Virus record (IMG/VR): IMGVR_UViG_3300025154_000065
Coordinates: 22,772-86,771 of that record
Length of the DNA: 64,000 nt
Source: a virus
Reading direction: 5' to 3' (one strand)
Shown here piece after piece: positions 17,204 to 57,769 of the stretch (its first letter is position 1; every line of letters starts with the position of its first letter). The notes below the pieces were generated by a model. It saw only the letters and a list, made by a program, of their open reading frames with translations, was not told the DNA's origin and did not search any database. Position numbers and translations under genes: made by a program.

Positions 17204-18853
17204 TTATTCTCCTTCATAATCTTTTTTGACTTCGCCATAATATTTATTTGTTATTCCTTCTTCATGAAAGAATGTGGGAATTCTTGCAGAAAAGGTTCTA
17301 TCTGATGATAACCATCCAGGTGATATTAATTTAACATCTTCATTTGCAGATATAATAATTGCTTTTATAAGCACTTCTGCCCAATAAGGTTCCTTTTTTA
17401 AGAAGAATCCAGATAATATTTTTGATCTATTTCTTTCAATAAATTCCATATACTTCTTTGAACTTAATCTAAAGCAATTTTCGTCAGACGATGAGAATTT
17501 ACAATCTAATCTACCATTTACTTTCTCGCAATAATACTTTTTGATTTGAATAGTAAGTGCAGGATATTGATCTTCAATTAAACGGATATTACCTTGTGGT
17601 ATAAGTTTTGGAGGATTTTCTAAATTAGAGATAAAATTACTTAAAGGGATTGGATATTCTAATGTTTTGTTTATTTCAATTGCATATGAATTATAAAAGA
17701 AATCTTGCATTTTAAGTTTTGCCATACTACGTTTGGTTGTTTCCTTGGTAGGAGTGTAATTTATATCAAGCGCAGCTTTATGGAAATTTTCTATTGATTG
17801 AACTATTTGTTCTTTAGTATAAATCTTTCCTTTATATGTTTCATTTAAACCTGCTTTATGATCAAAGAATATACCAGACATTATATCTTTTATAATATTT
17901 CTACAAAATTTATAATCTTCTTCTGTAAGGAATTTTAGTTTCTTTAATCTCCAAAATGATATTATTTCATCTATATCATCTTTAATTGGAGTATTGTATT
18001 CTATTCTTTTGCCGCGAGCGCCATTATTAGATTTAGAAGCAGGTTTATCACACTTTGAAAAATCTAACTCGTCCTTGGAAGGGCGTCTAAATGTCTTCCC
18101 TTCCAAGGGAGTGTTATCTTCTTTGCAAGGAGTGTTTAATTTACAAGGAGTTGATTGATTATCTTGAGTTTGATTGATATCTATATTTACTCTCTTAAAT
18201 GTTTTTGTTGTTTTAATGGACGATTCAGCCGACGGCTGTTCCGTCGGCTTTGTATTAGATGATGGAATAGACTGCGAAGCAGGATATTCTTCTTCTAATA
18301 CTGTTTTATTACTACTTGTTATACTTATATCTGTTATACCTTGATCATCCAAGCCTGTACCATCCAAGTTTGCATCATCCATACCTGCATTTGGCACACA
18401 CGGTTTTTCCGTATATGCATTTAGTACACACGGATTTTCTTCAATTAAATCACATACTTTTGTAATCGGCTTATTTCTTTTTCCAAGAGGTATTAATTTA
18501 AATCCTAAATTGGCCTTATTTGCTCTTTCAAGAGCTTCATTTTCTTCAATAGGTCTACTATAAACACAGTATAAATATCCTTCAATTACATTACCTTCTC
18601 CTCTTTTACTAAATCTATAAACATATTTAGCATCTAATAATTCATCAAGAGCAGTTCTAATTGCTCTTTCGCCATCAGTAACTCTTTTTATAATATCTTT
18701 TAAATAAAGTTTCCATCCTTCTTTTCTTGTTGTCATATATGTATGAATATATTTTGCTCTTGCTGATAATGTATGGTCATCATCTAATACATGTAGATCA
18801 AGTATCCTAAATTTTTCCATTTTTTCTTCTTGAATATATCTTAATTCGCTCAT
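17204..18853 (-). CDS. Winged-helix replication-type protein, 549 aa
   Basis: The N-terminal 110 residues form a winged helix (LSARAKYIHTYMTTRKEGW, IIKRVTDGERAIRTALDEL) of the type found in phage replication initiators and loaders. A long Ser/Thr/Pro/Asp-rich linker (about 130-290) follows, then a C-terminal helical domain (LRSW-like IISFWRLKKLKFL, EEDYKFCRNII). The two downstream genes carry paralogous winged helices. A role in origin recognition or helicase loading is inferred from architecture and from the neighbouring replisome genes. GGAGG TTTGAA ATG sets the start. Confidence 0.55.
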   Translation of the reverse strand: MSELRYIQEEKMEKFRILDLHVLDDDHTLSARAKYIHTYMTTRKEGWKLYLKDIIKRVTDGERAIRTALDELLDAKYVYRFSKRGEGNVIEGYLYCVYSRPIEENEALERANKANLGFKLIPLGKRNKPITKVCDLIEENPCVLNAYTEKPCVPNAGMDDANLDGTGLDDQGITDISITSSNKTVLEEEYPASQSIPSSNTKPTEQPSAESSIKTTKTFKRVNIDINQTQDNQSTPCKLNTPCKEDNTPLEGKTFRRPSKDELDFSKCDKPASKSNNGARGKRIEYNTPIKDDIDEIISFWRLKKLKFLTEEDYKFCRNIIKDIMSGIFFDHKAGLNETYKGKIYTKEQIVQSIENFHKAALDINYTPTKETTKRSMAKLKMQDFFYNSYAIEINKTLEYPIPLSNFISNLENPPKLIPQGNIRLIEDQYPALTIQIKKYYCEKVNGRLDCKFSSSDENCFRLSSKKYMEFIERNRSKILSGFFLKKEPYWAEVLIKAIIISANEDVKLISPGWLSSDRTFSARIPTFFHEEGITNKYYGEVKKDYEGE

Positions 18854-19795: not shown

Positions 19796-20173
19796 TTATT
19801 TTTTACGTTTAGATTTAATAGCGTTATTTAGATGTTCAGAACCACTGGTAAAATTATCTAAATGCATTTTCAGGAAATATTCACATTTCTCACTACCAGA
19901 CATTGGACCATTACAAAATCTCATATAGTGACCATAGGCAGCCATTGATACATCAAAATCACAGAATGCTTTGAATAGATCAATACTGGATTTCTTTGAC
20001 ATTTCATATTCTGCTTTTGCATCAGCATATAGTTCTGTACTTTTACTATATGAGACGCTATTTTCAACAGCAGATCTGAATTTTATTAGTGATTTAATAG
20101 TTGAATTTTCATCAGCAAAAGCAATTGATGAAGTCAGGATTGTCAAAATAACGATTGATATCCTTAGTTTCAT
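19796..20173 (-). CDS. Exported protein with signal peptide, 125 aa
   Basis: A clear signal peptide, MKLRISIVILTILTSSIAFA, with cleavage likely before Asp21. The mature part is helical with two or three cysteines (FCDFDVSM, FCNGPMSGSEKCEY) that could form a disulfide. It should act in the envelope of the infected cell, for instance in superinfection exclusion, but this is inference. Strong AAAGGAG site. Flanked by perfect hairpins on both sides. Confidence 0.6.
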   Translation of the reverse strand: MKLRISIVILTILTSSIAFADENSTIKSLIKFRSAVENSVSYSKSTELYADAKAEYEMSKKSSIDLFKAFCDFDVSMAAYGHYMRFCNGPMSGSEKCEYFLKMHLDNFTSGSEHLNNAIKSKRKK

Positions 20174-20190
20174 GATTCAACTCCTTTTAT

Positions 20191-20219
20191 CTACCTGATA
20201 GATTAAATCTATCAGGTAG
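20191..20219 (-). terminator. 12-bp perfect hairpin between lipoprotein and exported-protein genes
   Basis: CTACCTGATAGA, 5-base loop TTAAA, and the exact complement. It starts 13 bases past the lipoprotein stop and ends just before the AAAGGAG of the next gene. Without a U tract it may serve as an mRNA processing or stability element rather than a terminator. Confidence 0.5.
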
Positions 20220-20231
20220 ATATCAATACAT

Positions 20232-20816
20232 CTATTTCGTCATAACTGCTTTACTTTTTTCGAGTATTTTGATAGCTTCGTCTGTATTTACAATAGCCAG
20301 TCTAACAACAGGTTTTGCAAAATTCAAAGGTACTGTAGAAACAATATATTTCATATTGGTTTCAATATAAATGTCTTCAGGGGTAAATCCAAAAACACTA
20401 TCACCATTTGAACCATAACTTCCATCTTCTGCTGGCGAAGGCAGCGCAGATGATTCATAATGACCATAATTAGAACTCCATACAATTTGTTCTGTATTTG
20501 TTAGTTGACTATTAATAGAACTAACTTTATTGACCATGTAGTATCCAACAGGATCAGCAACTCCTTCAATAAATACATACATAAAGAAATTTATTGTTCT
20601 GTCATTTTGAAGTTTAAATCTCTTGATAAGATTATCTCTCTCAAGACTCCATGTAATTTTTGGAGGAGGTTGACGTTCAAGAAGTCCTCTCTGATTGTCT
20701 TCTGTCATTGATTGTTCTTGTTTGGCTGTTTTATTCTCATTCTCATCACAGCCTTTATTCCCCATCAAAATAAAGCACATCACAAAGATCAATCCTATTG
20801 AAGATATCTTTCTCAT
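20232..20816 (-). CDS. Putative lipoprotein, 194 aa
   Basis: The N-terminus MRKISSIGLIFVMCFILMG then NKGCDENE is a signal sequence with a Cys at about residue 23; the lipobox (NKGC) is imperfect. The body matches a family recalled from phages and prophages (YVFIEGVADPVGYYMV, KVSSINSQLT, SPAEDGSYGSNGDSVFGF). Expected in the cell envelope; function unknown. It ends in TAG. Confidence 0.65.
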   Translation of the reverse strand: MRKISSIGLIFVMCFILMGNKGCDENENKTAKQEQSMTEDNQRGLLERQPPPKITWSLERDNLIKRFKLQNDRTINFFMYVFIEGVADPVGYYMVNKVSSINSQLTNTEQIVWSSNYGHYESSALPSPAEDGSYGSNGDSVFGFTPEDIYIETNMKYIVSTVPLNFAKPVVRLAIVNTDEAIKILEKSKAVMTK

Positions 20817-48246: not shown

Positions 48247-48438
48247 TTAAATGTTTAATAATGCAATAATATGTTTACATTTTACTTTACGGATACGATG
48301 ATGCTCGCAAGAACATCTATTCTTATCTGGTATTACATGATACGGTTCTTCCTTCGTATTCTCATCCCATAAGGAGTATCCTTCGTCAAATCTTTTAACT
48401 AAGAGATATTCCTTGCCATCAAGAATGAATTCTTTCAT
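48247..48438 (-). CDS. SWIM zinc-finger protein, 63 aa
   Basis: The start at 48438 follows AAAGGAGAG. CSCEHHRIRKVKCKHIIAL is a SWIM-type zinc finger (CxC...CxH), usually a DNA- or protein-binding module. The rest (EYLLVKRFDEGYSLWDE) is a short beta domain. Confidence 0.7.
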   Translation of the reverse strand: MKEFILDGKEYLLVKRFDEGYSLWDENTKEEPYHVIPDKNRCSCEHHRIRKVKCKHIIALLNI

Positions 48439-48526
48439 CTCTCCTTTCTTCATGATTTTCCTTCATAGATTTTAAGACATAGATATCCACCGGATTTATG
48501 GTATTGCAAGAAGATATTTGAATTCT

Positions 48527-48769
48527 TTAAGCATATTCTACAGTAAACGGTCTTAGAAATCTTCCTCTTCTTTCTCTCTGCTGTTCTATCTGACTTTGCG
48601 TTCTCTTAAACAGAGAAATCCTCTCTCTGACCACTATGTCAAGATAATCAAAGCGATTATCTCCTGGAAGAGAGTAGATATCTCTCATTGCAGATTTCGC
48701 CTGTTCTTGAGAGATAGGATAAGGAATACCCTTACTCTCAAACATTTGTTGGATTTCGTTTATACTCAT
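48527..48769 (-). CDS. Hypothetical protein, 80 aa
   Basis: Helical, ending in an Arg-rich stretch (QQRERRGRFLRPFTV). Not recognised. Preceded by family A RNA element copy 1. Confidence 0.5.
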   Translation of the reverse strand: MSINEIQQMFESKGIPYPISQEQAKSAMRDIYSLPGDNRFDYLDIVVRERISLFKRTQSQIEQQRERRGRFLRPFTVEYA

Positions 48770-48806
48770 AATAATCTCCTTCTAAGTTAGGTATCAATAC
48801 CAGACT

Positions 48807-48878
48807 TCTACATACACAATTAAGGCTATGATATCTATAAAAGCCTATCATAGCTAAAATTCTACATGTAGATATCTA
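48807..48878 (-). ncRNA. Repeated intergenic RNA element, family A, copy 1
   Basis: Minus strand begins at the TAG stop of the upstream gene: TAGATATCTACATGTAGA, a variable hairpin (GCTATGATA/TATCATAGC), then AATTGTGTATGTAGA. TCTACATGTA pairs with TGTATGTAGA (10 bp with G-U), and AATT with AATT. Two further copies lie at 49826 and 50520. Confidence 0.65.
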
Positions 48879-49040
48879 TCGCTTAATAAATTGACATATT
48901 TCTGAATTAGGTCCAATCTTTTTGTTAAAGAAAAAACTATCAGGACATGAACATATACACTTTTTGCGTTTATCTTTATTTAATTTCTTAAAGTACTGAC
49001 AGATTTTACATGTAGGATATGTTGTACCATGTTTCTCCAT
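48876..49040 (-). CDS. Cys-rich protein, 54 aa
   Basis: ATG at 49040 after AAGGAGAAGAT. TCKICQYFKKLN, CICSCPDSF and EICQFIKR give at least six cysteines; a metal site is likely. Its TAG stop is the first codon of an RNA element. Confidence 0.55.
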   Translation of the reverse strand: MEKHGTTYPTCKICQYFKKLNKDKRKKCICSCPDSFFFNKKIGPNSEICQFIKR

Positions 49041-49052
49041 ATCTTCTCCTTC

Positions 49053-49463
49053 TTAAATCCGATGATAGGTTACTTTGTTTGTGATAAAACCACTTTTAGA
49101 ATCATATACTTCCATAATCCTATCCCAAGAAGCATATTCAAGATCCCATCCTCCAGGTTTGTGTAGATATCTATCTTTGCTTACACAAACGGCGGTATGG
49201 ATCAGATCCATTCTCTTACTCTTTCCATTAAAGCAGTGGTCATCACCCCACATAGCGACAATATCACCGGGCTGTGGTTCTTCAACTTTTTTAGTCTTCT
49301 TTAGATATCCTTTCATCTCTTCCGAATAAATCCATTGAATTCTATCATACAATCCTGTAGTGTAAGCAGCGAAACAATAACAGTTGTAATCGCCTTGAGG
49401 AAGTTTTCTATTACTAACCTTCCTCATATTCCTAGACAATGTACTGCGATTTTTTGATACCAT
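49053..49463 (-). CDS. NlpC/P60- or CHAP-like cysteine hydrolase
   Basis: 136 residues. NCYCFAAYTTGLYD supplies a candidate nucleophile Cys at a helix start, EPQPGDIVAMWGDDHC a typical strand, and LIHTAVCVSKDRYLHKPGG the His. The order and spacing match papain-like NlpC/P60 or CHAP hydrolases, which cut peptidoglycan peptides or other amides. No signal peptide; it may act in the cytoplasm. Confidence 0.6.
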   Translation of the reverse strand: MVSKNRSTLSRNMRKVSNRKLPQGDYNCYCFAAYTTGLYDRIQWIYSEEMKGYLKKTKKVEEPQPGDIVAMWGDDHCFNGKSKRMDLIHTAVCVSKDRYLHKPGGWDLEYASWDRIMEVYDSKSGFITNKVTYHRI

Positions 49464-49472
49464 ATCTTCTCC

Positions 49473-49793
49473 TTATTTAAATTGTTCAAATGGAATAGAC
49501 GCATAATCCCTATGGAATACTACTTGATCGTACAATTCCAAAACCATCTCTTCAGGAACTTCAAAAGAGACAAGACGGCTTGACTTATCCCATTCAAAGG
49601 AATAACTATTCTCTGAGTCTTTAAGCAGTTGTTCTTTAGTAAATCCAAAATACCACTTGGATGGATATCTATTAATCTCTTCATGGTCTCTGAACTCATC
49701 ATACTCAAATGGTCCGTTCAACAGAGTCACTACTTTATGTTGATATGAACCTTGTAATGTAGCTGCTCTGCCAGTGTAACGATATACCTTCAT
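49473..49793 (-). CDS. Hypothetical protein, 106 aa
   Basis: KVYRYTGRAATLQGSYQHKV, later FGFTKEQLLKDSENS. Not recognised. Preceded by family A RNA element copy 2. Confidence 0.5.
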   Translation of the reverse strand: MKVYRYTGRAATLQGSYQHKVVTLLNGPFEYDEFRDHEEINRYPSKWYFGFTKEQLLKDSENSYSFEWDKSSRLVSFEVPEEMVLELYDQVVFHRDYASIPFEQFK

Positions 49794-49825
49794 AAATCAA
49801 ACCTCCTTTCTTTCAGTTGAAGTTC

Positions 49826-49897
49826 TCTACATACACAATTAAAAAGAGGAAGATAATAAATACTCTTCCTCTCTAAAACTCTACATGTAGATATCTA
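49826..49897 (-). ncRNA. Repeated intergenic RNA element, family A, copy 2
   Basis: Same flanks as copy 1 (TAGATATCTACATGTAGA at the upstream stop; TGTGTATGTAGA at the end). The inner hairpin is different in sequence (AGAGGAAGA/TCTTCCTCT) but paired, which supports RNA structure rather than a protein or DNA signal. Confidence 0.65.
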
Positions 49898-50230
49898 TTT
49901 TAAACTCATCCAATGGTCGTACTCTTCCTGAGATATTAAACCTTCATCTAAGGAAACTTTCAATCCAACTTCGGAAAGTTTGTTATTACTCCAAAAGTAA
50001 TACTTTTCAATTTCCGCTTTGAAATTCTCAAATGCCTTATGAGTGTACTCAATAAAAGCATCACTCCTTTCTTTCCCCCAATCATCACCACCGCTCATCT
50101 TAAACAAAGCAGTAAGAACGTTCTCTGCACCATACTCTCGAATCATCTTTTGCATCTCACCATTGATCTTATAATACATATTAATTTCCTTAATCATCTT
50201 TTGCATTTTATCATTGATTTCACACTTCAT
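49895..50230 (-). CDS. Hypothetical protein, 111 aa
   Basis: An N-terminal internal repeat (INDKMQKMIKEI, INGEMQKMIREY) and a helical body. Ends in a TAG that begins an RNA element. Not recognised. Confidence 0.5.
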   Translation of the reverse strand: MKCEINDKMQKMIKEINMYYKINGEMQKMIREYGAENVLTALFKMSGGDDWGKERSDAFIEYTHKAFENFKAEIEKYYFWSNNKLSEVGLKVSLDEGLISQEEYDHWMSLK

Positions 50231-50242
50231 AACTTTCTCCTT

Positions 50243-50488
50243 TTAAGTTAGAATTTTACAACAACACACACACTTCATCACACTAGATATCTTAGTGTAT
50301 GCACTATGCCGACAATAAGGACACTCCATAAGAAAGTATCCAGCTTTTAACATCTCCTCCTCTTTTTGGTAAGATTTCTGTTTGATTTTTTCCATAACAA
50401 ATTTTGGAACGTAACGAGAAGGTCTTAAACTTCTTTCTAAAGATCTTCCCTCCTCACAATGCTTACATTTACAATAAGCTTTATGCAT
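50243..50488 (-). CDS. Zinc-finger protein, 81 aa
   Basis: AYCKCKHCEEG at the N-terminus and MECPYCRHSAYTK with MKCVCCCK at the C-terminus suggest two metal sites. Function unknown. Preceded by family A RNA element copy 3. Confidence 0.5.
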   Translation of the reverse strand: MHKAYCKCKHCEEGRSLERSLRPSRYVPKFVMEKIKQKSYQKEEEMLKAGYFLMECPYCRHSAYTKISSVMKCVCCCKILT

Positions 50489-50519
50489 TTGTTCATACCT
50501 CCAATTTTAAAAGTTAAAA

Positions 50520-50593
50520 TCTACATACACGATCAATGCTATGAAAGATAATCTCTAAGCCCTCATAGCAAAGACTCTACATGTAGATATCTA
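50520..50593 (-). ncRNA. Repeated intergenic RNA element, family A, copy 3
   Basis: Starts at the TAG stop of the upstream gene. Outer pairs as in copies 1 and 2; a pair in the second helix has changed from T-A to C-G with both sides altered (GTC opposite GAT-C). Inner hairpin GCTATGA/TCATAGC with a larger loop. Confidence 0.65.
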
Positions 50594-50809
50594 CTCTTCC
50601 TTAAAAGAGCATTTAAAACCCATCGGTCCCCAAAGTCTTTGAATTGCATCAATGAAGTCCTCATGGCAACAACACTCCATTTTAGCAAACCAAAGAGCAT
50701 CAATTGTCTTATCCACATCCTGATAGAGATAATACCATAAAACTTCTACTAAATCCAAACCTTCCAATTTTTCACTTAATCCATTAAATCCATCTTTATG
50801 TTCTTCCAA
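50591..50809 (-). CDS. Hypothetical protein, 72 aa, TTG start
   Basis: The start is TTG at 50809 behind AAGGAGAAGATT. Helical, acidic (EKLEGLDLVEVLWYYLY), with a CC pair. Ends in a TAG that starts an RNA element. Not recognised. Confidence 0.5.
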   Translation of the reverse strand: MEEHKDGFNGLSEKLEGLDLVEVLWYYLYQDVDKTIDALWFAKMECCCHEDFIDAIQRLWGPMGFKCSFKEE

Positions 50810-50824
50810 AATCTTCTCCTTTGG

Positions 50825-51094
50825 CTATTTGTTCAAACTCATTAATTGTTCAAAAGATATCAAGTCCTTACCATAAAGTTCCAAAATCTTCATTCTTGAC
50901 ATTTTGGAAACGTCAATATTGCTTTTAATCTTTTTAGGACAAAGAAGATTATTTAATTCTTCTTTGGCTTCTTTTATACTATTAACGGGGATTAGTATCC
51001 CATTGCCTATTACATACAAACCATCGCTCTTTCTAACAATTTGAGGTTTACAATCTGTATTAAATTTTACTCCGTCAGTAAATGTAATGTTCAT
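50825..51094 (-). CDS. Hypothetical protein, 89 aa
   Basis: MNITFTDGVKFNTDCKPQIV, then a beta-rich segment and a helical end. Not recognised. Confidence 0.5.
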   Translation of the reverse strand: MNITFTDGVKFNTDCKPQIVRKSDGLYVIGNGILIPVNSIKEAKEELNNLLCPKKIKSNIDVSKMSRMKILELYGKDLISFEQLMSLNK

Positions 51095-51116
51095 AATCTT
51101 CTCCTATTCAAATAAA

Positions 51117-51830
51117 AAAGTTCTTCCCTAACTACTCTTTAATCTCCACTATAGAGACAAAAGAACACTACAAGAAAGAACTTTACTTGTATATACAAGT
51201 AAAAAAGTATCTCTTCCTTTGAATAAGACTTCATATAAAGACAGTCCCATTCAAAGGAAGAGATATCAATAACAGTAACACAAAAATCTGTATTCTTATG
51301 ATAACTTTAATCAAAAATTGATCAAAGACTCTCAAGTATTTACTAGGTTTCTCATTAGTGACAAAACATGAGAAAGTCTTCAATACTTCTCAATCCTAAT
51401 AATAGATTGAGACTTTTGAAGTACAAAATTTATAGTCCAATAAAACAAAGTATTAAATTAATACTAATGTTCTCAGATATAAATCTGCTTCAATTGGTGA
51501 GAGATTTTAACACGTATTATCTAGGAAGTGCTAAAACCTAACCTGTAATAAACAACAGGATTTTAGAAGAACAATTTTACCGGAAGTTAATGTGTATAGA
51601 GTGCTAATCTATACTCTGAAGTGAGAACCTTTATTGACCCGGTGATTTGTCAATCTAGATCTTCAGTCTTAAACTTATATAAGCTTTTGTACTCCTTTGC
51701 ATACATGGTGTTAGAAGTCAATGTTAAGGGTTTTTAAGTTTACCAAAGTTTGCTAGACTTTTCTTTGGGTAGCTTTTAGTCTCCAATCGTCTAAGGGTTA
51801 AGTCACTAGGTCAGTATGCAAACTCTACAT
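51117..51830. ncRNA. Gene-free, hairpin-dense region: candidate large structured RNA
   Basis: About 710 bases without a gene contain many nested helices: 51117-51125 with 51176-51184 (9 bp); 51208-51224 with 51249-51265 (17 bp, perfect); 51182-51203 (22-bp palindrome); 51334-51340 with 51382-51388 enclosing 51348-51355 with 51368-51375; 51389-51395 with 51405-51411; CAGAT/ATCTG at 51474; CTAAAA..CCTGT / ACAGG..TTTTAG near 51530-51566; ACCGG/CCGGT (51579-51643) enclosing GTATAGA/TCTATAC. The nesting is what large ornate phage RNAs (GOLLD, ROOL type) show, but I cannot match a named family. The strand is not decided. Confidence 0.5.
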
Positions 51831-51836
51831 ACTCAG

Positions 51837-52310
51837 CTAATGACTTAAAGAGTAGTGAACCTCACCTGTTTTCTTACATGCTTTAGGTTTACTAGTCTTC
51901 GGTCTACAAACCTGGACATAACTACCATGAGTGCTAAAAGAGACGGTAAAAGGTCTGTATTGCATAGGTACAGTAAGAGCTAATCGTTGAAGGGAGGTTA
52001 GGCAAAAGTCTCTCAAACGGCCAATTTGAGACCTTAAAAGGGCGGGTAACACGTAAGGCTCATGGTAGATGCTAAGGTCTGATTGCACCTCTAAGCTACA
52101 CTCTACAGGACCATGAGGACCAGCAAGGGCAAAGGACAAAACCCTGCCTGCAGTCCGTTGGTCAAGCTGGTATGCAATCGAAGCAAGGTCAAGAGTAGTA
52201 GTAATGCCTTCCAACGTCCATACGTGCCACTCAGAGGCCGGATTTTGGCTCTCATTAGCATGTAAAGGCTTTGGATTGCTAGGAAGTGAAGGTCTGACTA
52301 AACGCCTCAT
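51837..52310 (-). CDS. Hypothetical protein, 157 aa (GC-rich island)
   Basis: Basic protein using GC-rich codons (about 50% GC against about 30% around it). GAAGGGG precedes the ATG. Not recognised. With the next two genes it forms an island that looks foreign to the rest of the window. Confidence 0.45.
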   Translation of the reverse strand: MRRLVRPSLPSNPKPLHANESQNPASEWHVWTLEGITTTLDLASIAYQLDQRTAGRVLSFALAGPHGPVECSLEVQSDLSIYHEPYVLPALLRSQIGRLRDFCLTSLQRLALTVPMQYRPFTVSFSTHGSYVQVCRPKTSKPKACKKTGEVHYSLSH

Positions 52311-52418
52311 AAAACCCCTTCAAAACGCAAAAAGGCCGTCAATCCTCAAATTAGAGGACTAACGGCCTATGCAGTGCTTTACTAACCTAGTGAGGGTCAG
52401 CTATGCCATACGGTGGCC

Positions 52419-52595
52419 TTAAATGAGCTTCAAGAGCTTGCCAAAACTGACCACGAGCTTATGGTCAAGTCTCAAACGCTCTTCGATTTGACGGCGTAAC
52501 CTTGCCAAGTCAACAAACGAGTCTGGTATGTTGTCCGATGCAACGTGGACTACCTCACCTGTCTCACGGTCGTAAAAAAGACTAAGCTTCGCCAT
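52419..52595 (-). CDS. Hypothetical protein, 58 aa (GC-rich island)
   Basis: The start at 52595 is set by GGGAGGCAAACA. AKLSLFYDRETGEVVHVAS then a basic helix (RRQIEERLRLDHKL). Not recognised. Confidence 0.5.
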   Translation of the reverse strand: MAKLSLFYDRETGEVVHVASDNIPDSFVDLARLRRQIEERLRLDHKLVVSFGKLLKLI

Positions 52596-52606
52596 TGTTT
52601 GCCTCC

Positions 52607-53236
52607 CTATGCCAAGCTCAAGGTTTTGCCAGTTTTGACCAAAAATCCTGCCAAAATCATGCGCTCCACAAGTCTGTATTGCGGATGTATTTGACCACAA
52701 TCTCTCAATGCCTCTGCCATCGTGCAAGGGCCAATCGAAGCGATGGATTGCATGAAGGCACTCTCGTTACCTACCAGCCCAAACCTGTCTGCATCTTCTT
52801 TGTTACGGGAAGTGGTCCTGGCAATGGTCGTGTTACCCTTGGGAGCCTTTTGTCCCGTCAGTTTAGCAAGCTCGCTCTGAAGGAAGGCAACGTTAGCCAA
52901 AGCATCCTGGAGGACAAGCTGCACAGCCACAAGGTCGGCCTTTGCTACCTCAAGAGCTTGCTGGTATGTCCCAATCAGCGGGTTAACACAAAGTTTGTCC
53001 AGGGAGCGAAGCTCGATTGCTACCCAATGCGCCGTCCGTCGCTCTTCAAGCTCTTCTTTGCGGGCAACGTCAAGGGCCAGTTTGATGCTCTGCACTTTGC
53101 TGAGCTTCACGACCTTGCGCCGGTCAATAACCAGCCCGGTAAAATCAGGGTTGTCAAGAGGATTAAAGGGAGCCTCAACGGTCTGCACTTCAACCGGAGC
53201 CTCGATGATTGCCGTAACTGCCTTTTTGTCCTTCAT
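52607..53236 (-). CDS. Coiled-coil protein, 209 aa (GC-rich island)
   Basis: AAGGATGAAACA precedes the ATG. N-terminal half helical, middle coiled coil (LQDALANVAFLQSELAKL), C-terminal region SIGPCTMAEALRDCG ... RLVERMILAGFLVKTG resembles a small winged helix. Not recognised. Codon use differs strongly from neighbours, suggesting transfer. Confidence 0.5.
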   Translation of the reverse strand: MKDKKAVTAIIEAPVEVQTVEAPFNPLDNPDFTGLVIDRRKVVKLSKVQSIKLALDVARKEELEERRTAHWVAIELRSLDKLCVNPLIGTYQQALEVAKADLVAVQLVLQDALANVAFLQSELAKLTGQKAPKGNTTIARTTSRNKEDADRFGLVGNESAFMQSIASIGPCTMAEALRDCGQIHPQYRLVERMILAGFLVKTGKTLSLA

Positions 53237-53269
53237 TGTTTCATCCTTCTGTCTAAGGGTTAGCTTCTC

Positions 53270-53290
53270 CAGGGAGCAACTCGCTCCCTG
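53270..53290 (-). promoter_or_regulatory. 8-bp GC-rich hairpin in the leader of the island
   Basis: CAGGGAGC, loop AACTC, GCTCCCTG, 34 bases upstream of the start at 53236. Could be an operator, attenuator or terminator of incoming transcription. Confidence 0.4.
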
Positions 53291-53303
53291 TCTGTCTTCT
53301 TAG

Positions 53304-54436
53304 TACCCTTAAATGATGATTGCAAGGACAAAATGCAAAATACCCAATAACATCCCCATTTTGTTTTAGCACTCGCACTAAAGGATACTATTGCAATGAT
53401 TAGGCCATTTTGGTTTATTTTGGGTGTTTTTTAGTCTAATTGGGTGTTTTTGTATATATATGGTTTATTTTGGTAGATCAATGGTTGTTTTGGCTACGTC
53501 AATCAATAAAACCTTTGTGTATATAGGTTTTAATTATACGTCTATAGCAAAGGCTGTATAATAGCTCTGGTAGCCAATCTACAGACTATAGCATTAGTAT
53601 GAGCTAACTATGGATATCCATATGATGCTTTATTAAATAGACAATGTTTTATATGGCAATCAATTGTTTTATTAGGAGAACCAATGTTAGGCTAGTTAAA
53701 CTATATTTTATATGGCAATCAATTGTTTTATTAGGAGAACCAATGTTAGGCTAGTTAAACTATATTTTATATGGACTTCCAAACTTAGGCAATGGTATCC
53801 ATAGTATGGAAGGGTAGACTAAGTATGGTATGAAGTGACAAAGTAGGGAGGGGGTATCAAAAGTTAGGGATAGGTTGACTAATTTGTGGTGCGTAGCAAT
53901 CCATAGTATATCTGGAATTCTGATGAAATCACTATTACTTATTGATATCTTAGATTATGTTAATAATAACACAACCAGATAATATATCTATGAAAATTTA
54001 AAGAATGCATAATATTTACAGATATCTATAAATTATAGATATAAAGTGCCAAATAATATATCTGAAATTCAGAGAGAATTGCCTATTGATTGATATCATA
54101 TTTCAATTCAAACCTCTTCTCCACACTCTAATCACTTTTTGCCGTAAGTCGTAACACAAAGAACATTTATACTTTCTATTGCTAATATACTCTACTAATT
54201 CTTCATCAGTCATTTTATAGATATCCTTAAAAATTTAAATTGTTATATTTTATATAAACCATAGAATATATTATCTTCAAAACTCTCTACAAGAAAAGTC
54301 TTATTTTGAAGGATCTTTTGTAGTATTTATAAGGAGGTAGTATTTTACAGATATCATAGTAAATTTACTACTTCCTTATAAATATTGATTAAGATACTTT
54401 TATTGTCTTAATCGCCTACAGGGAGAAGTGATCAAT
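53304..54436. other. Gene-free, AT-rich, repeat-rich region
   Basis: About 1.1 kb with no credible gene. It holds paired short repeats near 53.40-53.47 kb (GGTTTATTTTGG twice, TTGGGTGTTTTT twice), a 59-bp tandem repeat (53647-53774), and several dispersed units with GATATC and TATATCT. Such features suit a replication origin or regulatory region. Nothing in the sequence proves it. Confidence 0.5.
53647..53774. repeat. 59-bp tandem direct repeat (two full copies and a partial)
   Basis: Copies start at 53647 and 53706, with the first 10 bases repeated again at 53765. Each unit contains TTAGGAGAACCAATG, i.e. a ribosome-site-like AGGAG before an ATG, but the frame after it is only three codons. 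Confidence 0.85.
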
Positions 54437-54601
54437 TTATAGATATCTATTATCTAGGTAGAGACTAATTGTTATAGGAATTATTGTTAATACACAAAAG
54501 AAGGGATATAAAAATATTCCTAAATTATTACATTCCTTAGATACTTCTTCTTGATAGAATTCCCTAACTATTCTTAGATTATTTATAAATATAGATATCA
54601 T
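54437..54601 (-). CDS. Small membrane protein, 54 aa
   Basis: The start at 54601 follows AAGGAGTAAATCTA. C-terminal hydrophobic helix (GIFLYPFFCVLTIIPITISL). Function unknown. Confidence 0.5.
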   Translation of the reverse strand: MISIFINNLRIVREFYQEEVSKECNNLGIFLYPFFCVLTIIPITISLYLDNRYL

Positions 54602-54606
54602 TAGAT

Positions 54607-54792
54607 TTACTCCTTGCAATAAACACATATTGGATTATCTTTGTCTTCTTGAGAGAACCAAGTAAACATTCCACACTTAATACAACCTAAATAAATTTGA
54701 TTCTTTAGATTGATACATTTAGGATTATTACGATTTCTTTCATTTACTTCATAGATATCTGTTTCTTTGAATATATTAGTATCTTCTTCCAT
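54607..54792 (-). CDS. Zinc-ribbon protein, 61 aa
   Basis: CIKCGMFTWFSQEDKDNPIC, then VYCKE, forms a CxxC...CxxC ribbon. Function unknown. Confidence 0.55.
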   Translation of the reverse strand: MEEDTNIFKETDIYEVNERNRNNPKCINLKNQIYLGCIKCGMFTWFSQEDKDNPICVYCKE

Positions 54793-54862
54793 TTATTTTA
54801 TTCCTTATCTAAATAATAATGATATCTTTTTAGATTATTGATATCTACTCTTTTTTGCATTT

Positions 54863-54982
54863 CTATCTCAAATATAAAAGTAGTCCAATTATTTCTATAT
54901 TTTTATATTTTTGAACATTTCCATCAAACCAATTCCATTCAAAGTCTAACCATATTAATTCTGCTAATCTTATCCAGAACAT
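54863..54982 (-). CDS. Hypothetical protein, 39 aa
   Basis: ATG at 54982 after AAGGAGTTCTAAAA. Trp-rich amphipathic sequence (IRLAELIWLDFEWNWFDG) and a hydrophobic end. Short; moderate support from the ribosome site. The 80 bases downstream hold no clear gene. Confidence 0.4.
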   Translation of the reverse strand: MFWIRLAELIWLDFEWNWFDGNVQKYKNIEIIGLLLYLR

Positions 54983-54994
54983 TTTTAGAACTCC

Positions 54995-55201
54995 TTATGA
55001 TTTATATTCAAAACATAATCTCAATGCTTGTTCATCATTAAAACCGGCTGCTTTGAATGCATCAAATTTTATCTTTGTTATTTGAGCAGTTACTTTGAAT
55101 AATTCTACTTGATTCTGTAAATTTGCTTTAAATATATTGATATCATCTTGTAATTTATTTGGTCCTTCTGGTGCTTTATTGATATCCTTACTTTTGCTCA
55201 T
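54995..55201 (-). CDS. Hypothetical protein, 68 aa
   Basis: Helical; KAAGFNDEQALRLCFEY at the C-terminus is a pattern seen at the end of many small phage proteins. Overlaps the previous gene by 14 bases. Confidence 0.5.
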   Translation of the reverse strand: MSKSKDINKAPEGPNKLQDDINIFKANLQNQVELFKVTAQITKIKFDAFKAAGFNDEQALRLCFEYKS

Positions 55202-55379
55202 CTTTGAATCCTTTGCAATGAATAAGCCAATAATCTACTGCTTGGATAATAGCGTCGTTGTAAGAAACAATTTCTTTATCTTCTCTTAATTTATCAAATG
55301 CATCTTTATATTCTATAGGAAGTTGTGTCGCATACTTGAATCTAATTTCTGACAATCTTTCATCTTTTCTATTAGCCAT
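55188..55379 (-). CDS. Hypothetical protein, 63 aa
   Basis: Helical, charged (IEYKDAFDKLREDKEIVSY then DAIIQAVDYWL), perhaps a ribbon-helix-helix-like fold. First gene after a near-consensus promoter. Confidence 0.5.
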   Translation of the reverse strand: MANRKDERLSEIRFKYATQLPIEYKDAFDKLREDKEIVSYNDAIIQAVDYWLIHCKGFKDEQK

Positions 55380-55430
55380 CTTTATATAATCTCCTATAAT
55401 GTTTTATTATTTTATACAAACTCATAGAAG

Positions 55431-55458
55431 ATTATACAATATTATAAGACCATGTCAA
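55431..55458 (-). promoter_or_regulatory. Near-consensus sigma70 promoter
   Basis: Minus strand: TTGACA (55458-55453), 16-bp spacer, TATAAT (55436-55431). Same geometry as the 19.65 kb promoter. The predicted leader is about 45 bases to the 55379 start. Confidence 0.85.
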
Positions 55459-55467
55459 TAAAATATT

Positions 55468-55839
55468 TTATTCATCATCCCAATATTTTTCTATCATATC
55501 ACAAACTTTATTCCTGGCAGATGGTATTAATGAAGCGATGCAAGTTTGATTGATATCACCATCTATAATTGCAATCTCTTCTCTTAGCAAATACCACATC
55601 TCTCCATAGATAATACCATCACAAAAGAATGTCTCTCTTACTGATAGGCAGGTATTGCAAGTTCTATGGACGTTAAATCCTTCAAAGATAAATACTTCTT
55701 TTCTGTAGGATTCTCCTAGATTTATTACTTGTCTACACTCATCACATTTATGATTCTTTCTTGATCTTTTGATAATTTGATCACTGGACACTGTAACAAA
55801 TCCATCTTCTGGTTCAACGTAAATGCAAGAACAGTCCAT
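55468..55839 (-). CDS. Conserved phage protein with zinc motif, 123 aa
   Basis: RSRKNHKCDECRQVINLGES then HRTCNTCLSVR is the pattern of a recurrent small phage zinc protein. Function unknown. Its last codons lie just before the promoter at 55.45 kb. Confidence 0.6.
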   Translation of the reverse strand: MDCSCIYVEPEDGFVTVSSDQIIKRSRKNHKCDECRQVINLGESYRKEVFIFEGFNVHRTCNTCLSVRETFFCDGIIYGEMWYLLREEIAIIDGDINQTCIASLIPSARNKVCDMIEKYWDDE

Positions 55840-56177
55840 TATTCAATCCTTCTTTTGTTGAGATTTACTTGAAGTCGTTTTATTGATATCTTTAAGTCTA
55901 TTTCTTTTCTGAACAAATAATATCCGACAATTTCTTCAATAATATTTGGTTCTTCTTTTAAAACATCATTATTTGCATAATAGACAAGTTTTAATATATC
56001 ATTAATATCTTCAATTTTCTTTTCAAATCTTAAAAGAGTATAATTGGTATGGTCTTGATTGATATCTTCGCTAAATACACTACGGCCAACTCCAGTTAAA
56101 AACCAACCATCTTTGAATTCTATTCTACAAAATGGATTATTTGGATGATTTTCAAATTCATCAATATATTTTTGCAT
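55839..56177 (-). CDS. Hypothetical protein, 112 aa
   Basis: Alpha/beta (CRIEFKDGWFLTGVGRSVF) with a basic helical end. Overlaps the next gene by one base. Not recognised. Confidence 0.5.
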   Translation of the reverse strand: MQKYIDEFENHPNNPFCRIEFKDGWFLTGVGRSVFSEDINQDHTNYTLLRFEKKIEDINDILKLVYYANNDVLKEEPNIIEEIVGYYLFRKEIDLKISIKRLQVNLNKRRIE

Positions 56178-56184
56178 TTTTGCC

Positions 56185-56475
56185 TCATATAAAAGTATAA
56201 AGAATAGTTATATCTTCTTTATACTTTTTTAACTTATTTGTTAAACACGCCTGAGATTCTTCTAATTCTTCAATTTCTCTCAGTAATCTATTAATTTCGA
56301 TATACTTATCTTTAATCCTGTCTTCAAGAATATTAAGATTATCTTCACTTGAATCAATATTGTATTGATAATCTATATCTTCCAATTCTGATGTATAATT
56401 ACCATTTAAAGGACAGAAATGGAACCATAAATCATCATAAAGATCAGTAAAACCACATAAGGGACACATTCTCAT
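56185..56475 (-). CDS. Zinc-finger plus coiled-coil protein, 96 aa
   Basis: The start at 56475 is set by AAGGAATAAGTG and overlaps the upstream stop as TGATG. CPLCGFTDLYDDLWFHFC is a C2HC-like finger; the C-terminal half is a coiled coil (DKYIEINRLLREIEELEES). Confidence 0.5.
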   Translation of the reverse strand: MRMCPLCGFTDLYDDLWFHFCPLNGNYTSELEDIDYQYNIDSSEDNLNILEDRIKDKYIEINRLLREIEELEESQACLTNKLKKYKEDITILYTFI

Positions 56476-56687
56476 CACTTATTCCTTCTTAAACGGGCTT
56501 TAATTTGCCTATTTCTATCTATTCTTCTAAACTCTGCCCATAGTCTAAAATTGAGTGACATCCATACTAGAATAGAACCAATAATCCAGATTGCAAAATC
56601 TACCCAAGTTAATTCTTTCCATCTATCACTTGTGGTTATATTGACTCCTAAAACTGTTAAAGAAAGTACAACGAATAGAAATGTCAT
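56475..56687 (-). CDS. Membrane protein, 70 aa
   Basis: Two helices (FLFVVLSLTVLGVNI and FAIWIIGSILVWMSLNF) and a very basic tail (RRIDRNRQIKARLRRNK), expected on the cytoplasmic side. Function unknown. Confidence 0.55.
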   Translation of the reverse strand: MTFLFVVLSLTVLGVNITTSDRWKELTWVDFAIWIIGSILVWMSLNFRLWAEFRRIDRNRQIKARLRRNK

Positions 56688-57199
56688 TTTATTCTATCCT
56701 TCATGAGTTCTTGAATTCTATCTGCTGCATCATCTATCTCTTTTATATAAAAATTTTCTGGATTTATTTTTATTCTTTGAATTGATTCATTTGATAATGC
56801 AATTCTAACATTATAAGGAAATCCATCTATTTGGATAGTCAATTCTACGTGATCAATTTCATCAAAAGGCTTTGTTTCCTTAAATTGATTACATTTACAA
56901 TCGCCACATTCAATACACCTTCCACACTTATTACAAGCTATACAATCTGAACCATCCCCATATTTTTCATCCATTGTAGTCATTTTAGATTCCTCTATAT
57001 TATCATTACTTAAATCATTCCACATATATAACGCACCATTAATAGCACTATATGGTCTTATTGATTCAGTCATTTCAAACTCTTTAGATTCTAATCTTTC
57101 TATTGTATTAATAAATGATATTATTCCTTTAGGTTCTTTTGTATTAGTTTCCATTTCGTTGATTAAAGGACTTGTCCAATCATTCCAGAATTCAATCAT
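56684..57199 (-). CDS. Cys-rich protein, 171 aa
   Basis: A central cluster CIACNKCGRCIECGDCKC of eight cysteines could hold iron-sulfur or zinc. N-terminal half has GALYMWNDLSNDN. The rest is a beta domain. Not recognised. Confidence 0.5.
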   Translation of the reverse strand: MIEFWNDWTSPLINEMETNTKEPKGIISFINTIERLESKEFEMTESIRPYSAINGALYMWNDLSNDNIEESKMTTMDEKYGDGSDCIACNKCGRCIECGDCKCNQFKETKPFDEIDHVELTIQIDGFPYNVRIALSNESIQRIKINPENFYIKEIDDAADRIQELMKDRIK

Positions 57200-57769
57200 T
57201 TAACAAAACTCCTCATAGAATGCTTTTATTATCAATGCGCCACCAATTTGTTTTGATATGGCAGTCTTTGAAAATTTTCCATCACTTGTGTATTTACCTG
57301 AAGTATAATGATTGCTACCAGACCATAAATAAGGAGATAGAACGTCGGGATGATGCTTTCTATACCCCCATCCGTTGTATTCTTCCAGTTTATAGAGCAT
57401 CCCTGAGATGGTCCAATTTGACCAAGAATCAAGCTTTTTGAGTTGAAGCGCATCTAAGGCCGAATCTTCCCAAGAATACGGAGGATTGCCAATTTTGGGC
57501 CTTCCTTGGGGTACGTGTATGGTTTTTCGGTCTAGCGAGTCGCCATTATGAAGGTGACAATTAAAACTGAGAGATGCTTCCATTGAATGTATTGTTGCTA
57601 TAAAGTACCAAGGAATATTATTTAGTTTTAAAGAGACTTTTAGATATCTATATTTATTTGCTGATATTTTAGCTACTATTTTATTGAGTTCGGAATTGAA
57701 ACTATCTCTTATAATGCAAGAGTCAAATAAAATTTTATATTCTTTTTCTAATTCTTCTGTTAGATTCAT
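57200..57769 (-). CDS. Putative endolysin (lysozyme-family protein)
   Basis: 189 residues with PWYFIATIHSMEASLSF (candidate catalytic Glu), LHNGDSLDRKTIHVPQGRP, SWEDSALDAL, KLEEYNGWGYR and LWSGSNHYTSGKY. From memory these blocks belong to lysozyme-family proteins of phages and bacteria that cut peptidoglycan glycans. No signal peptide, so release would need a holin. It overlaps the upstream gene as ATGA. Confidence 0.65.
   Translation of the reverse strand: MNLTEELEKEYKILFDSCIIRDSFNSELNKIVAKISANKYRYLKVSLKLNNIPWYFIATIHSMEASLSFNCHLHNGDSLDRKTIHVPQGRPKIGNPPYSWEDSALDALQLKKLDSWSNWTISGMLYKLEEYNGWGYRKHHPDVLSPYLWSGSNHYTSGKYTSDGKFSKTAISKQIGGALIIKAFYEEFC

What the first reader, a model, noticed from the sequence alone, without database searches (positions are those of the whole stretch)
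51117..51830. Gene-free 0.7 kb with many nested hairpins: candidate large structured RNA
At least ten helices, several nested (a 17-bp perfect stem, ACCGG/CCGGT around GTATAGA/TCTATAC, CTAAAA/TTTTAG around CCTGT/ACAGG), fill a stretch without genes in an otherwise tightly packed genome. Phages carry giant ornate RNAs such as GOLLD and ROOL of this size. The region could be such an RNA or a new class.
Basis: partly seen in the sequence, partly recalled or inferred. Interest (0 to 1): 0.72.

Follow-up and report, generated by a model that had tools for sequence, protein, structure and literature searches.

The report
Phage non-coding stretch with double terminator
A 0.74-kb stretch of a phage genome really has no genes and ends in two strong transcription stop signals, so it is probably transcribed as untranslated RNA, but apart from those stop signals its folding is little better than other parts of the same phage and it matches no known giant RNA.

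Summary
Window 51095-51836 (742 nt) holds no ORF of 60 aa or more, and the hairpins exist. The whole stretch folds better than shuffles (z -7.9 minus strand, -6.2 plus). Most of that signal comes from two hairpin-plus-U-tract elements at the 3' end of a minus-strand transcript: T1 (51208-51265) and T2 (51118-51183), the two most stable terminator-like hairpins found on either strand of the 64-kb window. With them removed, the body (51269-51850, minus) scores z -4.2, or -3.1 without the 5' hairpin that overlaps the preceding stop codon. That is only the top few percent of equal windows of this phage, and one coding stretch scores better. GOLLD, ROOL and all other Rfam models are silent. No relative was found in phage or plasmid records, in IMG/VR, or in terminase relatives, so covariation could not be tested. 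Best reading: an untranslated minus-strand RNA closed by a tandem intrinsic terminator that insulates, or conditionally controls, the operon starting 24 nt later. A new large ornate RNA is not excluded but rests on weak evidence. More unusual is the neighbouring GC-rich cassette (51.84-53.3 kb), bounded by a 12-nt direct repeat.

The parts
51095..51836 (-). gene-free stretch between two minus-strand ORFs
51798..51848 (-). 5' hairpin (21-nt arms, imperfect) overlapping the last codons and stop of ORF 51837-52310
51269..51797 (-). body: scattered moderate hairpins, no fixed global fold predicted (ensemble diversity 159 for the 771 nt folded)
51208..51265 (-). T1, 23-bp stem followed by UUUUUU: intrinsic-terminator-like, -34.3 kcal/mol
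51118..51183 (-). T2, 66-nt stem-loop followed by a U-rich tract: intrinsic-terminator-like, -25.9 kcal/mol
50825..51094 (-). first ORF of the downstream operon (89 aa, unknown); its Shine-Dalgarno sequence follows T2 directly
51837..52310 (-). upstream ORF (157 aa, unknown), last of the GC-rich cassette

Best explanation
The stretch is the untranslated end of a minus-strand transcription unit. Transcription that arrives from the upstream GC-rich cassette (or starts near 51850) runs through about 570 nt of non-coding RNA with scattered hairpins and is stopped by a tandem intrinsic terminator, T1 then T2. The pair separates the cassette from the operon that begins 24 nt after the T2 stem. The strand and the double terminator are read from sequence; transcription, termination and any separate function of the 570 nt are inferred.
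For: No genes. T1 and T2 are the two strongest terminator-like hairpins on either strand of 64 kb, and both face the minus strand. All neighbouring genes are on the minus strand. The body folds somewhat better on the minus strand (z -4.15) than on the plus strand (-2.96). The plus-strand G-over-C skew is about -0.15 to -0.47 over the minus-strand genes at 48.0-51.2 kb but near zero in 51.2-51.8 kb, as expected of non-coding DNA.
Against: A 570-nt tail without genes is long for so packed a genome and invites a function of its own. No promoter or transcript has been shown. The terminator calls are pattern and energy only.
Confidence: 0.45

Rival explanations
1. A separate large structured phage RNA of a new class, working like GOLLD or ROOL (for example as an assembled RNA particle), about 570-740 nt, minus strand.
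For: Gene-free stretch of the right size in a packed phage genome; own strong 3' ends; stem number about twice that of shuffles; z -4.15 for the body.
Against: No Rfam match. Body folding not exceptional for this phage. Ensemble diffuse, with no stable multi-branched core. No tRNA island nearby: the tRNA genes of the window are about 40 kb away. No relatives, so no covariation.
Confidence: 0.15
2. A cis-acting leader of the downstream operon (51094 onwards): T1 and T2 act as attenuators, and a promoter or antitermination signal lies inside the stretch.
For: T2's U tract ends about 10 nt before the Shine-Dalgarno sequence, leaving no room for a promoter after it. The T1 5' arm UUUGAAUGGGA resembles the ribosome-binding region UUUGAAUAGGA, so the T1 3' arm could pair with that region instead (repeat D6).
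Against: A 23-bp T1 stem is hard to open. No regulator, no ligand, and no convincing promoter on the minus strand here (only 9-of-12 matches). The arm resemblance was noticed after the fact.
Confidence: 0.2
3. Spacer or decayed DNA at the edge of an inserted GC-rich cassette, with nothing functional in it except the terminators.
For: The GC-rich island 51837-53300 is bracketed by the exact 12-nt direct repeat GTCTAAGGGTTA at 51789-51800 and 53251-53262.
Against: No trace of decayed genes in the frames tested. Stem number about twofold above shuffles. The repeat was noticed after the fact, and no empty site is known.
Confidence: 0.2

Closest known systems
Tandem rho-independent (intrinsic) terminators of phages and bacteria
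   Same: stable stem followed at once by a U tract, twice in a row, facing the minus-strand transcription
   Different: T1's stem (23 bp) and T2's 66-nt element are larger than usual; activity untested
GOLLD RNA (Rfam RF02032)
   Same: phage-borne, gene-free stretch of similar size
   Different: no match to the model; not near tRNA genes; body folding weak
ROOL RNA (Rfam RF03087)
   Same: phage-borne, similar size
   Different: no match to the model; not near tRNA genes; no stable multi-branched core predicted

Membership tests
GOLLD (RF02032) | match to the covariance model | tested here: not met
   no hit at gathering in the window, none at E up to 10 in 50400-55000, none in the whole 86.8-kb record
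GOLLD (RF02032) | often encoded near tRNA islands (PMC12286853; habit rather than definition) | tested here: not met
   tRNA genes of the window at 10.5 and 11.7 kb, about 40 kb away; a third lies in the rest of the record
ROOL (RF03087) | match to the covariance model | tested here: not met
   no control genome rang either, so that negative is weaker
Large ornate RNA in general | helices supported by covariation across relatives | not testable with these tools
   no relative found
Large ornate RNA in general | folding clearly above the genome's own background apart from terminators | tested here: inconclusive
   body z -4.15 (120 shuffles) against a tile mean of -1.2, sd 1.7 (20 shuffles each); one coding stretch reaches -5.55
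Intrinsic terminator | stable stem directly followed by a U-rich tract | tested here: met
   T1 -34.3 kcal/mol then UUUUUU; T2 -25.9 kcal/mol then UUUUAUUU
Intrinsic terminator | transcripts end there | not testable with these tools
   no RNA data

The most novel reading that the evidence does not exclude
An orphan class of large structured phage RNA, unrelated to GOLLD and ROOL, transcribed on the minus strand and ending in a tandem terminator.
Probability: 0.15. Interest if true: 0.65.

Novelty: new member of a known kind. Interest (0 to 1): 0.27.

Why it matters
If the body proved to be a conserved RNA, it would add a further case to the few known giant phage RNAs and could help explain why phages carry them. 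As it stands it is mainly a lesson in controls: two strong terminators can give a 0.7-kb stretch a striking folding z-score.

Tried and rejected
Rfam at gathering and at E up to 10 and GOLLD and ROOL alone: nothing. BLASTN of the stretch in phages and plasmids: nothing beyond a 25-nt chance match. Flanking genes in IMG/VR and a 25-nt exact pattern: nothing. The clamp-loader gene brought an identical fragment of the same phage (G004), which does not reach the region. Terminase relatives were searched for the RNA by nhmmer and BLAST and for gene-free structured gaps: L041 and L043 gaps unstructured; L028 is a prophage end with tRNA genes and an integrase-like ORF; L027 holds ordinary terminator-like hairpins. 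The 835-nt gap of G002 looked like small genes; the 314-nt part of it that was folded is unstructured. Recoded genes (TAG as sense) rejected. Counting G-U pairs on helices predicted for the minus strand favours the minus strand by construction and is not used as evidence. An early estimate of z -5.3 for the body (30 shuffles) was replaced by -4.15 (120 shuffles).

Full report
Setting. The window is part of an 86.8-kb virus record, a tailed phage by its terminase, clamp loader, sliding clamp, DnaB-like helicase and NAD-dependent ligase, GC 0.33. Around 51 kb all likely genes run on the minus strand.

The observation. Between ORFs 50825-51094 and 51837-52310 lie 742 nt with no ORF of 60 aa or more; the stop-to-stop frames tested match no PHROG. 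Stems of 6 bp or more are about twice as frequent as in dinucleotide shuffles and reach the top 5% of equal tiles of the phage. Two of its nested helices are present as letters but are not what the ensemble prefers.

Folding with controls. The whole stretch gives z -7.9 (minus) and -6.2 (plus) with 20 shuffles. Split up, T1 alone gives -9.8 on the minus strand. The remainder, 51269-51850, gives -4.15 minus and -2.96 plus with 120 shuffles, and -3.06 after the 5' hairpin is left out. In 99 tiles of 582 nt over the window (minus strand, 20 shuffles each) the mean is -1.2, sd 1.7; with 120 shuffles a coding stretch at 18020-18601 reaches -5.55 and a stretch at 19940-20521 reaches -4.24. The body is thus in the top few percent but not an outlier.

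Strand and ends. A scan of both strands for stable hairpins followed by a U tract finds T1 (-34.3 kcal/mol, UUUUUU) and T2 (-25.9 kcal/mol) as the two strongest in the window, both on the minus strand; a third, at 52334-52367 (-25.8), lies inside the GC-rich cassette. T2's U tract ends just before the Shine-Dalgarno sequence of the next gene. This makes a minus-strand transcript ending here the simplest reading. It also leaves the downstream operon without room for its own promoter after T2, which keeps an attenuation model open.

Relatives. None were found for the stretch or the three neighbouring proteins tried. A wider set of phages with related terminases holds no detectable copy, no Rfam family at gathering in the ten loci scanned, and no comparable structured gap once a prophage end and ordinary terminators are set aside. 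Covariation therefore could not be tested. Records of very near kin may be left out of these collections, as the tools warn.

Known families. GOLLD and ROOL form RNA nanocages and are often found near tRNA islands in phages (PMC12286853, read). Here the models do not match and the tRNA genes of the window are about 40 kb away. The stretch is not filed under either.

Conclusion. Most likely an untranslated minus-strand RNA tail closed by a tandem terminator, with a lesser chance of an attenuating leader, of leftover DNA beside an inserted cassette, or of a new large RNA.

Noticed in passing
51837-53300: GC-rich island (0.45-0.54 in a 0.33 phage) with three minus-strand ORFs (157, about 55 and 209 aa) without relatives or families, bracketed by an exact 12-nt direct repeat GTCTAAGGGTTA (51789-51800, 53251-53262): possibly an inserted cassette.
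   Followed up: partly
48400-57700: Motif TATAGATATC (one mismatch allowed) occurs 53 times in the window against 12 expected, clustered at 48.4-50.6 and 53.6-57.7 kb, several copies overlapping stop codons of minus-strand genes: perhaps a regulatory or intercistronic element.
   Followed up: partly
53304-54436: Second gene-free stretch, AT-rich, with a 59-bp perfect tandem repeat (53647-53774), a 21-bp imperfect tandem (53437-53493) and a near-palindrome at 54324-54384.
   Followed up: no
18020-18601: Coding stretch with strong folding on the minus strand (z -5.55), stronger than the body of the reported region.
   Followed up: no
L028:372-4779: Terminase relative that looks like a prophage end: terminase, tyrosine-integrase-like ORF, then two tRNA genes.
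   Followed up: no
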